Assembly: GCA_030528555.1 (NCBI GenBank)
Contig: JAUMYQ010000007.1
Location: forward strand, 1 to 64,000
Reading direction: 5' to 3'
DNA: 64,000 nucleotides
Source: Porphyromonadaceae bacterium
GTDB taxonomy: Bacteria > Bacteroidota > Bacteroidia > Bacteroidales > Porphyromonadaceae
Part shown: positions 4,874-9,858 of the stretch, piece by piece
Numbering within the stretch: the stretch's first letter is position 1
Layout: each line of letters begins with the position of its first letter
Made by a program: the position numbers and the translations under genes
The notes under the pieces: generated by a model
Told to the model about the DNA's origin: nothing
Seen by the model: only the letters and a program-made list of their open reading frames with translations
Databases searched by the model: none

Positions 4874-5105
4874 CGAACTGATAAGCGAGGAGCATATCAT
4901 CAAACGAGTGAGAGTGGTAGCGGGACATTAGCTCCTTGCGTATCTCTAGGTCTATCTCATCCTCGGCGGACATCACCCATTGGACGGTGTCCTGCAACCG
5001 CTGCGTGCGCATCCGAATGGCTGGGCATACAAGGCTGAGCCGTAGCCCGACCTCACCGCCATAGCCGAATAGCTCCTCGAGCTTGGCTCTTACTGCGTCT
5101 GTCAT
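4833..5105 (-). CDS. Small phage protein of unknown function
   Basis: The product is 90 residues, soluble and helical, beginning MTDAVRAKLEELFGYGGEV and ending with a helix-rich segment (SFDDMLLAYQFVKTGEFPAL). I do not recognise the family. It is the first leftward gene after the candidate early promoter at 5467-5498, with a long untranslated leader between them. First genes of phage early operons are often antirepressors or host-takeover proteins; nothing here identifies which. Confidence 0.55.
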   Translation of the reverse strand: MTDAVRAKLEELFGYGGEVGLRLSLVCPAIRMRTQRLQDTVQWVMSAEDEIDLEIRKELMSRYHSHSFDDMLLAYQFVKTGEFPALAEHK

Positions 5106-5466
5106 TGTCTTGTCTTGTTTTGTTGTTAATAGTCCGTAGTGCCGTCAGAGGCTTGCGAAGCCCGAATGGCGTGGCGGCTGTTTCAGTCGTTATGGCAAAC
5201 ACTTATTCATTCACTCGCCCCACGCTTTACCCCTCGTTCGTTCTCGTCTTTCTTATCGACCAGCCGAGGGCTGACGGCTATTATAATGGGTTAATTACTT
5301 GCTCGGCGGCTGCCCATCGGGCTAGCTCCGAGCCTAATAACTCTCTATCTTATAGCTCTGTATCAAATATGTCAAAGACCGCTCTTGCGTTTGCTTAGCC
5401 TTTTCGCTAGCTTTGCAAGTCCGAAGCACTCGGCTCTCTTAGCCTCGTTGGTTCGCTTCGGTAATG
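5106..5466. other. Long leader between early promoter and first leftward gene
   Basis: About 360 bases with no convincing gene on either strand. The rightward frame at 5105-5398 has poor composition, and leftward frames are under ten codons. The leftward strand carries CTTTGACATATTTGATACAG near 5360, which looks like a second promoter element. The stretch may hold a leader RNA or small RNA, but I see no clear structure. Confidence 0.4.
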
Positions 5467-5498
5467 CAAAGGTAAAGCAAATTAAAGCAACTGGCAAA
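5467..5498 (-). promoter_or_regulatory. Leftward phage early promoter with overlapping repressor sites
   Basis: On the minus strand, TTTG (5498-5495) is followed after 20 bases by TACCTTTG (5474-5467), a full match to the Bacteroidota -7 consensus with near-ideal spacing. AAGCAA occurs at 5475-5480, 5485-5490 and 5505-5510, offset by 10 and 20 bp, so all three fall on one face of the helix and overlap the core promoter. Control by the divergent repressor gene is the natural reading. Confidence 0.65.
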
Positions 5499-5530
5499 AT
5501 TTTTAAGCAAATAATTTAAGCTTTAGACTT

Positions 5531-6274
5531 ATGAGTGCTTTAATAACAACTGATTTTCAAGAGTTTATCAAGGTGAACGCCTTGAAAAAAAAAGACATTG
5601 CAGAGTATCTTGGAGTATCGAATGCCTTTATAACTCAGCTATCAAATGGCCTTAGGGGTGTGCCTGAAGATAAGATTGCCTTAATTAAAGCAAATGAGAA
5701 AGGCTGGGATGTTTCTATGTTCTTAGTGAACGAGGATGTAGAGGCGGAAGAAGATCGAGAGGAACTGGTAGGTGTACCGAAGCTGTCGGCTGTAGAGATC
5801 ACGGACGAGGAGGACTACGAAAAGGCTATGGCCACGGGCGTTCGGCTCATCCCCGAGTACGACCAAGACTTTAGGGGCGGAGATATGGGAGAGCTGCTGA
5901 GCAACGTTCATCCGATAGGCTTTTGGCAGATTCCTACGGGCAAAGCAGAGTTCGTAGTGTCGGTATCGGGCGATAGTATGGCACCAGTGCTACCCTCGGG
6001 GTCGAGGATAGCGGTACGTTCACTCGGCTTCGACAAGAGGCACCCCAATAGCATCCCCTTTGGTAGCATTTTCGCCGTGTCGGTCGAAGACCCAGTCACG
6101 GGCGAAAGCGTTGGCTACGTTAAGTACCTGCGTAGGCATAGCGACCCTACACTCGCCAAACGCTACTGGATAGCTCGCAGTGCAAACGCAGAGTGCTATG
6201 ACGACTTCGACATCGAGATAGAGCGTGTGCGTGCGCTCTTCATCGTTGAGTGTATGATGAATAGGTTAGTATAA
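5531..6274 (+). CDS. LexA/CI-type phage repressor (HTH plus S24 peptidase)
   Basis: The product is 247 residues. An N-terminal helix-turn-helix spans about 17-45 (KKDIAEYLGVSNAFITQLSN). A C-terminal S24 self-cleavage domain has the nucleophile in SGDSMAPVLPSG (Ser149) and the general base in GYVKYLRR (Lys198). Such repressors hold a prophage dormant and cleave themselves when RecA is activated by DNA damage. The gene diverges from the leftward early promoter and starts 21 bp from the last AAGCAA repeat. Base composition changes inside the gene: a sampled 60 bases of the DNA-binding part are about 35% GC, and 60 bases of the peptidase part about 62%. This suggests domain-level recombination. 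Confidence 0.9.
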   Translation: MSALITTDFQEFIKVNALKKKDIAEYLGVSNAFITQLSNGLRGVPEDKIALIKANEKGWDVSMFLVNEDVEAEEDREELVGVPKLSAVEITDEEDYEKAMATGVRLIPEYDQDFRGGDMGELLSNVHPIGFWQIPTGKAEFVVSVSGDSMAPVLPSGSRIAVRSLGFDKRHPNSIPFGSIFAVSVEDPVTGESVGYVKYLRRHSDPTLAKRYWIARSANAECYDDFDIEIERVRALFIVECMMNRLV

Positions 6275-6293
6275 TTAGATAGAGGATATAGTT

Positions 6294-6803
6294 ATGGAAA
6301 GCGTAGAGCAAAAGAAGACTTCTTCGATGACTATTTTCAGATGGGTTATGATGTTCCCAGCAGGGCTGCTAGGCGTTGGTCTGTTTTGGATATTGATACA
6401 ATACCCACTAACACGCTTCGTTATGCCAGAGCTTGTTGGATATGGATGGGAGGATTCGTGGGTTTATCTACTGACACACGTCCTATGTGAGATTGGTATG
6501 GTGTACAGCTACTATTTTATTGGGGCTAGAGTTGCTCCTGGCAAGAAAAAGGGGCTTGAGATTTTAAGCCTTATCCTGCTCTTCTACTTTTTCAGAAATC
6601 TTATTCGGACTGCAACCTTTTTCTTAGATGAAACGCTTATGGTTGCCGTTACCTATGCTTTAATGACATTGGTACAGCTGCTGTATGCAGGCTTCGTCCT
6701 CTACCACGTTTCCAATACAGATGAAAGTAAACTCAATAGAGTTGCGAAGTTTTTCCGTCTCTCGCTACCCAAGGAAGAGCAGGCTCTGGGGATAGTCAAT
6801 TAG
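6294..6803 (+). CDS. Four-helix membrane protein, prophage cargo
   Basis: The product is 169 residues with about four hydrophobic segments: near 17-38, 58-77, 88-106 and 112-137. Short charged ends should lie in the cytoplasm. I recognise no catalytic motif or family with confidence. The gene begins 19 bp after the repressor stop and ends 31 bp before the membrane-anchored nuclease gene on the same strand. Base composition is AT-rich like the nuclease gene and unlike the flanking genes. A partner role with the nuclease, such as sensor or membrane anchor, is inferred from this pairing; an independent superinfection-exclusion protein is the alternative. Confidence 0.75.
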   Translation: MESVEQKKTSSMTIFRWVMMFPAGLLGVGLFWILIQYPLTRFVMPELVGYGWEDSWVYLLTHVLCEIGMVYSYYFIGARVAPGKKKGLEILSLILLFYFFRNLIRTATFFLDETLMVAVTYALMTLVQLLYAGFVLYHVSNTDESKLNRVAKFFRLSLPKEEQALGIVN

Positions 6804-6834
6804 GGAGAACCTCGGGTAATTCCTACAGATTGTT

Positions 6835-8304
6835 ATGAATTTGTTTTTTGAGTATATCCAAAATTCTCCTGGCGCAATTATCTTGCTTGTATTGACAATC
6901 CCGATATGCGTATATCTATATCATTCTGTCAAAGACACCCTCTCTTCAGAGATTGATGCCCCAAGAACGAGAACCGCAAACTCAACGAAACTGATGGATG
7001 CGTTTCGTGCTACTGGCTGCGTCTTGTTTTTGACTTTTATAGGATTGATAAGTTACATCGCTTTTCCTGTAATTCTCGTAATCACATTTGGGGAACTTCG
7101 TAACTATGAGGCTAAATTCGACGATATATTTATTATGTCGATAGTTATAGCCATACTCTATATCTTCATTGGTTATATAGTAAATACTGTTCGAGGTCGG
7201 TATCTGTGGAAAGTTAGATCCTTAACAGCAAATTATGAGAAAAGAGAGCGAACCTTAGCAGCAGACTATGAAAAAAAGGTGGTCGCTTGCGAGAAGCGAG
7301 AGAAAGAGTGTGCCGTACGAGAGCATAAGGTCTTATCTTCCGTAGTTAATAAATATCCTTTTCAGGGCTTAGCAGAAGCATCAGCTGACCTTAAGATGGT
7401 TATGTATGATGAGGCTATCCGTTGGCTGGAGAATAAGAGTAGACCAGCCTATACTTCGGCAGAGGTAGTCAAGGAGTTAAGGGGTAAGACAAAAGTGTTT
7501 CAGACACAATACAAGCTAATGCTGTATAAATATGAGTTTCTGCTGAATAAGTTTCCCGAACTAGAGAAATATGTAGAAACTATTGACGAAATGAAGCAGC
7601 TCCAAGATTACACTAGCTTGTCAGAGTTAGAAGAAGATTACGACAGAACAAGGGACTGGCTAACTAGGGAGGAATACGAACGTCTTAGTGTTGATGCTCG
7701 TAATCAGCTCGCTCTAGATAACTACATCAAGTCTTTTAAGAAAAGCAATTGGCAAATCGGACGAGACTACGAACTTTATATCGGGTACTTATACCGAAAG
7801 CGCGGATGGACTGTTGTGCAGTTTGGCATAGAAGAAAGCCTAGGTGATATGGGTAGGGATATTATTGCCTCCGATGGGACGACAACGCATATAGTGCAGT
7901 GTAAATGCTGGAGTACAGAGAAAGTAATACACGAAAATGTAATCTGTCAGCTATATGGCACTGCGGTTCAATATGAGCTAGAGGCATTATCACGACCAAG
8001 TCTCTTTATGTCAAAGGTTATGCCAGTGCTATTTTCAACCACGGCTCTTAGCGACACTGCTCAGCGTTTCGCCGATAGGTTAGGTGTTGAAGTCCGAGTT
8101 GTACCTATGTCCGAAAATTATCCTAGAATTAAGTGCAATATCAACAATGGTAGTAAAATTTACCACCTACCATTTGATCAGCAGTATGACAGAGTGAAGA
8201 TAGACAAGCCTGGAGAGTTTTATGCGCAAAGCGTGCAAGAAGCAACTGCAAAGGGATTTCGTAGAGCGTTTCGCTTCACAGGGTTAAAGGGAAGAACTAA
8301 TTAA
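6835..8304 (+). CDS. Membrane-anchored coiled-coil Mrr-type nuclease
   Basis: The product is 489 residues. Three membrane helices lie at about 14-32, 58-86 and 97-119. A charged coiled coil (about 125-170) and a helical linker to about 300 follow. The Mrr-like restriction endonuclease domain (about 303-425) carries Glu313, GDMGRDII with Asp342, and QCKCW with Gln355 and Lys357, the D-QxK core of the family. The last 60 residues (KIYHLPFDQQYDRVKI, then QEATAKGFRRA) resemble the small Ada-like domain found at the C-terminus of some nucleases, but without its usual cysteines. The architecture predicts a nuclease held at the inner membrane. It is AT-rich and sits between repressor and integrase, fitting an anti-phage cargo gene; function is inferred. 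Confidence 0.85.
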   Translation: MNLFFEYIQNSPGAIILLVLTIPICVYLYHSVKDTLSSEIDAPRTRTANSTKLMDAFRATGCVLFLTFIGLISYIAFPVILVITFGELRNYEAKFDDIFIMSIVIAILYIFIGYIVNTVRGRYLWKVRSLTANYEKRERTLAADYEKKVVACEKREKECAVREHKVLSSVVNKYPFQGLAEASADLKMVMYDEAIRWLENKSRPAYTSAEVVKELRGKTKVFQTQYKLMLYKYEFLLNKFPELEKYVETIDEMKQLQDYTSLSELEEDYDRTRDWLTREEYERLSVDARNQLALDNYIKSFKKSNWQIGRDYELYIGYLYRKRGWTVVQFGIEESLGDMGRDIIASDGTTTHIVQCKCWSTEKVIHENVICQLYGTAVQYELEALSRPSLFMSKVMPVLFSTTALSDTAQRFADRLGVEVRVVPMSENYPRIKCNINNGSKIYHLPFDQQYDRVKIDKPGEFYAQSVQEATAKGFRRAFRFTGLKGRTN

Positions 8305-8370
8305 CAAGACGCACATCCAAATTATGGCAAATTCGCCGTAATTAGATTGTAATATAATCTACATCACACT

Positions 8371-9630
8371 ATGACCATCAAGAGGCATTGCCAGTTCCTC
8401 GTCTGTAAGCGAAAGAAAGACGAGGCACACGGCTACGTTCGTTACTTCGTGCGCTGGGCAGGCGAGATGCTTACCCTCAATGCTGGCTATGCCGTAGAGC
8501 CTGATAAATGGAGCTTAGAAACCCAACGCTGCAAGAACAACACCACCCACGGCACGAAGCGCACACCCTCCTCAACCATCAACCGAGCTATCGGCGAAAT
8601 GGAGCGTGCAATGGACGCAGCTTTTGCCTACTTCGAGGCTTCGGACAAAATCCCCACGAAGGAGCAGCTCAAGACAGAGTTCCTCAAGCGTTCGGGGGCG
8701 AAGATTAAGACCAAGTCCGACCTCTCGTTTTTCGAGGTCTTCGATAGGTTCTTAGAAAGCCAAACCCTAGAGCAACAATGGGAGCGAGGGACACGCCAGA
8801 AGTTCAAACAACTGCGCAACGACCTCTACGACTACAACAAGCATCTTACGTTTAATTCGCTCGACAAGGAGCGTCTGCTGGGCTTCGTCCTCTTTCTTCG
8901 TGATGATAAAGAGTTTCGCAACTCGACCATCCTCAAAAAGATTACTTTCCTCAAGTGGTTTCTCAATTGGTCTACAGCTGAGGGGTATAACTCCAATATG
9001 GCTTACAAAGCCTATAGACCAAGCCTCAAGAATGTACCTAAGGCGGTGATTTTCCTCGAATGGGAGGAACTAATGGCGGTTTGGGAACTAAAAGGCTTAT
9101 CCGAGCCTCTCGCACAGACGAGAGATGTGTTTTGCTTCTGCTGCTTTACAGGGCTACGTTACTCCGATGTGGCAAACCTCAAGCGTGCCAACGTATTCCC
9201 CAATTACATCCAAGTTACCACGATTAAGACCATCGACAACCTCATTATCGAGCTGAATGACTACTCTCGTGAGATACTCGACAGATACAAGGATGCAGAC
9301 CTCGCCAAAGGTAAAGCCCTCCCAGTGGTCGCCAACCAAAAGATGAACCTCAACCTAAAAAAGGTCTGTCAGCTGGCAGGGCTGGATAAGCCAACGCAAA
9401 TAACCTACTACAAGGCGGACGAACGCATCGAGGAGATACATCCCAAGTACGAACTCATCACGACCCACGCTGGCAGGCGTACATTCATCTGTAACGCCCT
9501 AGCCCTCGGTATCAATCCCGAAACGATAATGCAATGGACGGGACACAGCGACTACGATGCAATGAAGCCCTACATAGCCGTGGCCGATAAGACGAAAGCC
9601 AAAGCGATGACCCTCTTCAACAAACGCTAA
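8371..9630 (+). CDS. int: Tyrosine-type integrase of the prophage
   Basis: The product is 419 residues. It has an N-terminal arm-binding domain (about 1-110), a SAM-like core-binding domain (about 115-215) and a catalytic domain. The catalytic residues are visible: Arg263 in CFTGLRYSDV, His366 and Arg369 in THAGRRTF, His392 in WTGHSD and nucleophile Tyr401 in PYIAV. It would integrate and excise the element by recombining attachment sites. It is the last gene before the chromosomal tilS operon, which places the right end of the element in the 228-bp gap that follows. The GC content is back to that of most other genes here, unlike the AT-rich cargo upstream. Confidence 0.95.
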   Translation: MTIKRHCQFLVCKRKKDEAHGYVRYFVRWAGEMLTLNAGYAVEPDKWSLETQRCKNNTTHGTKRTPSSTINRAIGEMERAMDAAFAYFEASDKIPTKEQLKTEFLKRSGAKIKTKSDLSFFEVFDRFLESQTLEQQWERGTRQKFKQLRNDLYDYNKHLTFNSLDKERLLGFVLFLRDDKEFRNSTILKKITFLKWFLNWSTAEGYNSNMAYKAYRPSLKNVPKAVIFLEWEELMAVWELKGLSEPLAQTRDVFCFCCFTGLRYSDVANLKRANVFPNYIQVTTIKTIDNLIIELNDYSREILDRYKDADLAKGKALPVVANQKMNLNLKKVCQLAGLDKPTQITYYKADERIEEIHPKYELITTHAGRRTFICNALALGINPETIMQWTGHSDYDAMKPYIAVADKTKAKAMTLFNKR

Positions 9631-9858
9631 AAAGTGGTAGTAAATTCGAGGTGCTTCAATACCGCTCAATATCTCTTAAAGCAGCTAGATCCTGCTCGTA
9701 TCAAGCACTGCTAATACTCGGTACGTCTTAAATACCACTTAATACATCTTGTTTTTGGTGCTGGTGGTACCACAATGAGGTGCAGGCTATTTAGCTTGCA
9801 CTTCGTTGTTTCCAGGACTAAAAGAACTGATTTTTATCTTTACTTTTAAGGAAAAGAC
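9631..9858. other. Probable right end of the prophage, attachment region
   Basis: No gene is visible between the integrase stop and the end of tilS. The stretch contains GTGGTACCAC (9764-9773, perfect palindrome) and an adjacent imperfect hairpin at 9772-9809. I see no tRNA gene, so integration would be intergenic or in the 3' end of tilS. The core attachment sequence cannot be fixed without the left junction. Confidence 0.5.
9772..9809. repeat. Imperfect inverted repeat, terminator of tilS or attachment site
   Basis: GTGCAGGC, TATTTA loop, GCTTGCAC (9780-9801) pairs with one mismatch. Outer ACAATGAG/CTTCGTTGT arms extend the stem. No T-run follows on the minus strand, so it is a weak terminator at best. 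Its place beside the integrase makes an integrase binding site plausible. Confidence 0.45.

What the first reader, a model, noticed from the sequence alone, without database searches (positions are those of the whole stretch)
6294..8304. Membrane protein plus membrane-anchored Mrr nuclease as prophage defence cargo
A four-helix membrane protein and a three-helix, coiled-coil, Mrr-type nuclease with a C-terminal Ada-like domain form a tight pair (31 bp apart), AT-rich compared with the flanks, between repressor and integrase. The nuclease keeps Glu313, Asp342 and Gln355-x-Lys357. A nuclease fixed to the inner membrane could cut phage DNA as it enters. I do not recall this exact two-gene layout as a named system.
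Basis: partly seen in the sequence, partly recalled or inferred. Interest (0 to 1): 0.8.

Follow-up and report, generated by a model that had tools for sequence, protein, structure and literature searches.

The report
Membrane-tethered prophage DNA-cutting enzyme
A dormant virus in this bacterium carries, next to its own repressor gene, a DNA-cutting enzyme anchored in the cell membrane; relatives of the same build sit in the same place in many other dormant viruses, which suggests that they cut the DNA of rival viruses as it enters the cell.

Summary
Both genes are real and the coordinates are right, but the finding is the nuclease, not the pair. The 489-aa protein has three N-terminal membrane helices, a predicted coiled coil, a conserved helical segment, an Mrr-type nuclease domain with intact E313/D342/Q355-x-K357, and a C-terminal NCBIfam "sunset" domain. 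I found 27 distinct readable relatives. In the 24-row alignment (window plus 23), all 24 have an N-terminal membrane segment, all four catalytic residues and a sunset match. In 14 of 17 IMG/VR contigs a phage-type repressor lies upstream on the same strand; in 11 of 17 a recombinase lies downstream. Lactococcal superinfection-exclusion genes occupy the same slot. The 169-aa membrane protein has no credible relative in the collections searched and accompanies none of the other nucleases. Best reading: a single-gene prophage defence that cuts incoming phage DNA at the inner membrane and spares host DNA by location. It works like SNIPE (Nature 2026) but is not a SNIPE: no GIY-YIG or DUF4041 detected, profile-profile probability 5%. 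No PADLOC-DB 2023 family fits it, and three members queried against 50,697 phage records gave no match. It would be a convergent new variant of a very recently described kind.

The parts
6835..8304 (+). Membrane-tethered Mrr-type nuclease (489 aa)
   Evidence: ORF; Mrr_cat E 1.5e-6; 24 of 24 aligned rows keep an N-terminal membrane segment and E/D/Q/K.
6874..7182 (+). Three membrane helices, residues 14-32, 65-83 and 98-116; positive-inside rule suggests N-out, C-terminal part in the cytoplasm
   Evidence: Hydropathy; K+R 2 before and 4 after the last helix; 22 of 24 rows more positive on the C-terminal side.
7195..7380 (+). Charged, predicted coiled-coil stalk (residues about 121-182)
   Evidence: Sequence; profile matches to coiled-coil and stalk chains in the PDB, such as ATP synthase b, E 0.004-1, by composition only. 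No dedicated coiled-coil program was run.
7381..7743 (+). Conserved helical middle segment ending in the family signature LSxxERNQLALDRY (residues about 183-303)
   Evidence: Mean column identity 0.39 for 183-268 and 0.61 for 269-303; no Pfam domain above cut-off for the window protein.
7744..8109 (+). Mrr-type PD-(D/E)XK nuclease domain (residues about 304-425) with E313, D342, Q355, K357
   Evidence: Pfam Mrr_cat 310-382; invariant residues 24 of 24; PDB profile match 1y88 E 0.0059 and Holliday junction resolvase 1ob8 E 0.057 (on 8 of the 24 rows).
8116..8274 (+). Sunset domain (residues about 428-480), the most conserved part of the family (mean column identity 0.75)
   Evidence: NCBIfam NF051437; no PDB relative for a profile of 10 of the 24 rows.
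6294..6803 (+). Orphan membrane protein, 169 aa, 31 bp upstream; neighbour, probably not a conserved partner
   Evidence: no credible relatives; no PADLOC, PHROG or NCBIfam model.
5531..6274 (+). Prophage repressor with an S24-type C-terminal part; first gene of the apparent lysogeny operon
   Evidence: Peptidase_S24 E 1.9e-4; PHROG transcriptional repressor E 2.4e-7.
8371..9630 (+). Tyrosine integrase, end of the prophage
   Evidence: Phage_integrase E 6.7e-9; PHROG integrase E 5.9e-35.

Best explanation
The nuclease is a one-gene, prophage-encoded defence (superinfection exclusion by DNA cleavage). It is made in the lysogen from the repressor operon. The N-terminal helices hold it in the inner membrane and a helical stalk carries the Mrr-type nuclease and the sunset domain into the cytoplasm. 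There it cuts double-stranded DNA of other phages as it comes through the membrane; host DNA is spared because the enzyme is confined to the membrane and probably held inactive until it meets the injection machinery or the entering DNA. Shown by sequence: membrane segments, predicted topology, nuclease motif, sunset domain, gene position. Inferred: membrane location in the cell, catalytic activity, expression in the lysogen, cutting at entry, self-sparing by location, any role of the middle or sunset domain in recognising injection.
For: All 24 aligned rows have an N-terminal membrane segment (16 with one, 6 with two, 1 with three, 1 with four) and all keep E/D/Q/K; 24 of 24 match sunset; 22 of 24 are predicted with the nuclease in the cytoplasm. 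The N-terminal region varies in length and sequence while nuclease and sunset are conserved (part of the low N-terminal figure is due to gaps), as described for SNIPE homologues (PMC13190303, section 9). Same-strand repressor upstream above Pfam cut-offs in 14 of 17 IMG/VR contigs; recombinase within 2.2 kb downstream in 11 of 17. A mechanical count has the nuclease directly 3' of an HTH gene in 11 of 17, against 5 of 258 other ORFs of the same loci. Genes between integrase and repressor in lactococcal prophages include proven superinfection-exclusion genes, membrane association being common among them (PMC7693887, passages). The repressor-to-nuclease gaps of 19 and 31 bp suggest one operon. 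Sparse occurrence: 0 of 36 other genomes of genus and family, scattered across the order, as expected of mobile defence cargo. SNIPE shows the mechanism is feasible: a membrane-bound nuclease cuts phage DNA during injection, and removing its membrane segment makes it toxic (PMC13190303, passages).
Against: No experiment. The viral contigs are virus-labelled by the collection, so their phage context is partly by selection: of 9 distinct cellular or plasmid copies with readable upstream sequence only 3 (L008, L012, L019) have a repressor next to them; 6 (Hymenobacter plasmids, L007, L009, L010, L011, L016) do not. The HTH profile was built partly from the repressors it counts. No hit to known defence models shared by more than one of 24 rows. 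L016 has no membrane segment in the nuclease frame (an adjacent 112-aa ORF has one) and the remote L015 shows none. The sunset domain has no known function that I could find (one paper in the library holds the phrase, unrelated). No structure could be predicted.
Confidence: 0.6

Rival explanations
1. A membrane-tethered type IV restriction enzyme: it recognises modified bases, as E. coli Mrr-type enzymes do, and the membrane anchor is secondary.
For: Mrr_cat is the best domain match; Mrr_cat matched 9 of 11 rows of A1; one of 24 rows matches the PADLOC type IV model mREase_IV at E 7.7e-4.
Against: No separate DNA-reading domain such as a winged helix was called by Pfam on the window protein, although the middle and sunset segments are unassigned; this reading does not explain a membrane segment in 24 of 24 rows.
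Confidence: 0.15
2. An abortive-infection effector: the membrane part senses damage by an infecting phage and releases the nuclease onto host DNA, killing the cell.
For: Membrane segments plus a nuclease of no evident sequence specificity; many phage defences with membrane proteins are thought to act by cell suicide (PMC9122126, passages).
Against: A single polypeptide stays anchored, and nothing in the sequence suggests release; the nearest working analogue, SNIPE, cuts incoming DNA directly (PMC13190303).
Confidence: 0.12
3. A true two-gene system: the 169-aa membrane protein senses infection (Kiwa- or Zorya-like) and activates the nuclease.
For: 31-bp spacing, same strand, both AT-rich. L008 and L026 have a different multi-helix membrane protein downstream of the nuclease.
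Against: No relative of the 169-aa protein beside any other nuclease or in the searched collections; no PADLOC model, Kiwa included, at E<=1.
Confidence: 0.07
4. A gene of the phage's own life cycle, for example DNA processing at excision or breakdown of host DNA after induction.
For: Sits next to the integrase.
Against: Scattered presence in otherwise unlike phages, with tyrosine and serine recombinases; copies outside an evident phage context; placed with the repressor, which is normally on in the lysogen.
Confidence: 0.06

Closest known systems
SNIPE (PD-lambda-1; Saxton et al., Nature 2026, PMC13190303)
   Same: Single protein; variable N-terminal membrane part, helical middle domain, C-terminal nuclease in the cytoplasm; N-terminal region the least conserved, nuclease highly conserved.
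   Different: SNIPE has DUF4041 and a GIY-YIG nuclease; here DUF4041 is not detected, the nuclease is Mrr-type PD-(D/E)XK, and a sunset domain follows. Profile-profile probability 5.0 over 43 columns, outside the nuclease domains. One of 24 rows hits the PADLOC PD-Lambda-1 model at E 0.0038.
Mrr and related type IV restriction enzymes
   Same: Catalytic domain and E...D...QxK motif.
   Different: Membrane anchor, coiled coil, sunset domain and lysogeny-module position.
Lactococcal superinfection-exclusion proteins (Sie2009 type; PMC7693887, passages)
   Same: Encoded between repressor and integrase in prophages; membrane-associated; act on DNA entry.
   Different: Sie2009 is described as a small membrane-associated protein; this is a large protein with a nuclease.
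Kiwa (KwaA/KwaB) and Zorya (review PMC12904381, passages)
   Same: Membrane-located action on entering phage DNA.
   Different: Multi-protein systems; no PADLOC match of either window protein to them at E<=1.

Membership tests
SNIPE | N-terminal membrane segment with the rest in the cytoplasm | tested here: met
   24 of 24 rows with a segment; 22 of 24 positive-inside. Prediction only.
SNIPE | DUF4041 domain (PF13250) | tested here: not met
   No DUF4041 at E<=1 in the window protein and not among the 25 of 33 families shown for 11 rows; hhalign of A2 with 5 Bacteroidota DUF4041 proteins: probability 5.0, E 0.0078.
SNIPE | GIY-YIG nuclease domain | tested here: not met
   Window protein has Mrr_cat and no GIY-YIG model at E<=1.
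[quoted passage not shown]
   Needs phage assays.
Mrr-type (PD-(D/E)XK) nuclease domain | Mrr_cat profile above its cut-off | tested here: met
   28.7 bits against 21.
Mrr-type (PD-(D/E)XK) nuclease domain | E, D and QxK catalytic residues (motif recalled from general knowledge) | tested here: met
   Invariant in 24 of 24.
Type IV (modification-dependent) restriction enzyme | Cuts only modified DNA | not testable with these tools
   -
Lysogeny-module superinfection exclusion | Gene between repressor and integrase | tested here: met
   Window. In relatives: repressor upstream 14 of 17 and recombinase downstream 11 of 17 viral contigs (for L035 all integrase models fall below cut-off). Cellular or plasmid copies: repressor in 3 of 9.
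Lysogeny-module superinfection exclusion | Blocks entry of other phages' DNA | not testable with these tools
   -
Kiwa | KwaA-like membrane protein next to KwaB | tested here: not met
   No PADLOC Kiwa model for either window protein at E<=1.
   62 loci searched with the membrane protein: the window's own 2 copies and 1 chance hit.

The most novel reading that the evidence does not exclude
Membrane-tethered nucleases that kill phage DNA on entry evolved at least twice. This family is a second, unrelated invention of the SNIPE principle, built on an Mrr-type nuclease and carried by temperate phages in the repressor-integrase slot, with the strongly conserved sunset domain (not DUF4041) as the part that recognises entering DNA or the injection machinery. 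Temperate phages would thus use location, not sequence or modification, to tell rival DNA from their own integrated DNA.
Probability: 0.4. Interest if true: 0.8.

Novelty: new variant of a known kind. Interest (0 to 1): 0.6.

Why it matters
Telling self from non-self by place in the cell was described for one nuclease family, SNIPE, in 2026 (PMC13190303). An unrelated nuclease with the same build, found again and again in the lysogeny slot of temperate phages, would make that strategy a general one, explain how a prophage can carry an unspecific nuclease without cutting itself, give a first testable role to the sunset domain, and add a candidate defence for Bacteroidota, where few are tested (last point recalled).

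Tried and rejected
Two-gene system: rejected for want of any linked relative. The one distant hit, L045, lies in an ORF that I read as a sodium/calcium exchanger (not run against Pfam). A weak Ceramidase match of the membrane protein (15.3 bits against a cut-off of 32.5) was not pursued.

SNIPE membership: tested with 5 Bacteroidota DUF4041 proteins and rejected.

Ada domain: no Pfam support in the window protein. PDB search with the sunset profile gave nothing.

Single-sequence nuclease query in viral contigs gave nothing: 6 stretches matched a pattern, none a relative. The family only appeared with alignments: 16 relatives among 92 stretches, 17 among 88 (the same 16 contigs plus L055). No match in phages for three members, window, L028 and L034; L034 not in E. 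coli genomes at megablast level. Plasmids: the same 4 Hymenobacter records for two queries.

Rows left out of the 24-row alignment A2: L002/L003, L016 and L019 (kept out so that the alignment met the structure tool's source rule), L004 (fragment), L013 (no open frame across the match; not read through), L014 (nuclease identical to L012), L015 (remote, start unclear), L055 (found later; it has one N-terminal membrane segment). L009/L017 and L011/L018 are the same contigs seen twice. Three weak genome hits (G505, G759, G626) were not counted as relatives.

Promoter: no full Bacteroidetes-type -33/-7 match in 4901-9700, one -7-like site at 5408 (pattern recalled).

Full report
What is there. On the + strand lie, in order, a repressor (5531-6274), a 169-aa membrane protein (6294-6803), a 489-aa nuclease (6835-8304) and a tyrosine integrase (8371-9630), with gaps of 19, 31 and 66 bp. 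Upstream on the - strand are RecT (1868-2908), a YqaJ-type exonuclease (888-1844) and a weak NinB match (426-875), as in a temperate phage. The integrase is followed by host genes. The prophage is cut off by the start of its contig: the window begins at base 1 of contig C5. The nuclease gene is the most AT-rich 1470-bp stretch of the window among 626 sampled.

The nuclease. Hydropathy gives three helices at 14-32, 65-83 and 98-116. Pfam places Mrr_cat at 310-382 (E 1.5e-6, above cut-off), and NCBIfam places 'sunset' at 432-478 (26.1 bits against 27). A single-sequence PDB search finds nothing at E<=1. A profile of the nuclease domain (8 of 24 rows) finds 1y88 (E 0.0059) and a Holliday junction resolvase (E 0.057), weak but in keeping with the PD-(D/E)XK fold (fold assignment of those entries recalled).

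Relatives. The own genome has one copy. Among 61 related genomes only the window's own and one fragment match; none of 25 others of the genus and 11 of the family do. In the order 8 of 393 match, three of them only weakly; in the phylum 2 of 395. Genome contigs gave 10 loci, plasmids 4 Hymenobacter records, viral contigs 16 and then 17 loci. Counting identical or repeated copies once, and the Hymenobacter plasmids once, I have 27 relatives with a readable frame. For 23 of them plus the window (alignment A2), all 24 rows have one to four membrane segments before the middle segment; E313, D342, Q355 and K357 are invariant; mean column identity rises from 0.14 (residues 1-120, gaps counted as differences) to 0.55 (nuclease) and 0.75 (sunset). 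Every row matches sunset at E<=0.01. Twenty-two of 24 are more positive on the C-terminal side of the last helix; L008 (equal) and L026 (reverse) are the exceptions.

Position. In the 16 viral contigs first found, the gene or near neighbour upstream on the same strand is a repressor above Pfam cut-off in 14 (not L034; in L036 the upstream neighbour is on the other strand and was not run against Pfam). The seventeenth, L055, has no Pfam family in its two upstream genes. In L025 and L028 a mechanical opposite-strand ORF, and in L032 an IrrE-type peptidase, lies between. Within 2.2 kb downstream there is a recombinase in 11 of 17: eight tyrosine on the same strand, one serine (L037), two tyrosine on the other strand (L035, where all models are below cut-off, and L038). 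L024 and L055 run out of contig; L023, L025, L033 and L034 show none. A mechanical count on 17 loci has the nuclease directly 3' of an HTH gene in 11 of 17 and other ORFs in 5 of 258 (Fisher p 3.5e-12). That HTH profile was built from 13 of the upstream proteins, and the rows are related (pairwise identity over residues 269-480: median 0.50, highest 0.75), so the p value overstates. The independent support is the Pfam scan. Among 9 distinct cellular or plasmid copies with readable upstream sequence, L008, L012 and L019 have a repressor next door, and L008 and L012 also an integrase further on; L012's HTH match is below its cut-off. The Hymenobacter plasmids, L007, L009, L010, L011 and L016 have none; L006 begins at a contig edge.

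The membrane protein. It has no relative in 61 related genomes besides itself, one chance-like hit in 384 genomes of the order, none in phages, plasmids or viral contigs, none in PADLOC, PHROGs or NCBIfam at E<=1, none in the PDB, and none in 62 fetched loci except its own two copies and the same chance hit. Genome contigs was not searched with it. It may be a separate exclusion gene in the same slot; L008 and L026 carry other multi-helix membrane proteins downstream of their nuclease.

Mechanism. A nuclease with no sign of a partner, held in the membrane, in the repressor operon of prophages, points to cutting of incoming phage DNA. The model is SNIPE, for which cutting during injection, need for the nuclease and middle domain, and toxicity without the membrane segment are reported (PMC13190303: abstract, passages and sections 9 and 10 seen). 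The slot between integrase and repressor holds proven superinfection-exclusion genes in lactococcal phages (PMC7693887, passages), and the region beside the repressor is a known accessory site in lambdoid prophages (PMC7067206, passages). All steps from expression to cutting remain inferred.

Comparison. It is not a SNIPE: no DUF4041, no GIY-YIG, hhalign probability 5 with 5 DUF4041 proteins. Among PADLOC models, ten match one row each of 24 at E<=0.01, the best CARF4--CARF_PDDEXK at 8.9e-6, and none matches more than one row. Vassallo et al. 2022 mention an Mrr-family nuclease fused to a beta propeller and the DUF4041 protein, not this build (PMC9519451, passages); Rousset et al. 2022 mention Mrr_cat on STAND proteins (PMC9122126, passages). 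Ten paper searches listed nothing that names this build; the library holds open-licence papers only, and listings were capped at 20.

Verdict. A real, recurrent, undescribed (within these searches) family of membrane-tethered Mrr-type nucleases carried largely by temperate phages; the pair claim falls, and the entry-cutting reading is the best supported.

Noticed in passing
L036:4660-6771: This 703-aa relative holds an extra cysteine/histidine-rich stretch (CxC...CxH, SWIM-like by recall) between coiled coil and nuclease; Pfam did not call it.
   Followed up: partly
L016:947-2487: The membrane helix is in a separate 112-aa ORF that ends 2 bp before the nuclease ORF: a split gene, a frameshift or a two-gene form.
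   Followed up: partly
L033:6867-7040 and 8450-8635: Two short ORFs with the same first 30 residues flank the gene downstream of the nuclease, suggesting a duplicated stretch beside it.
   Followed up: no
L008:7469-8215 and L026:7172-8044: Multi-helix membrane proteins downstream of the nuclease, the latter with zinc ribbons; unlike the window's 169-aa protein.
   Followed up: partly
L002 and L003: In Hymenobacter plasmids the nuclease sits between a 415-aa protein of no Pfam family and an arsenic gene cluster, with no repressor seen.
   Followed up: partly
L013:6001-6729: The relative in this bacterial bin has no open frame spanning the match; probably decayed or an assembly error. Not read through.
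   Followed up: no
window:1-9630: The prophage is cut by the contig start, so its structural genes are not in the window.
   Followed up: no
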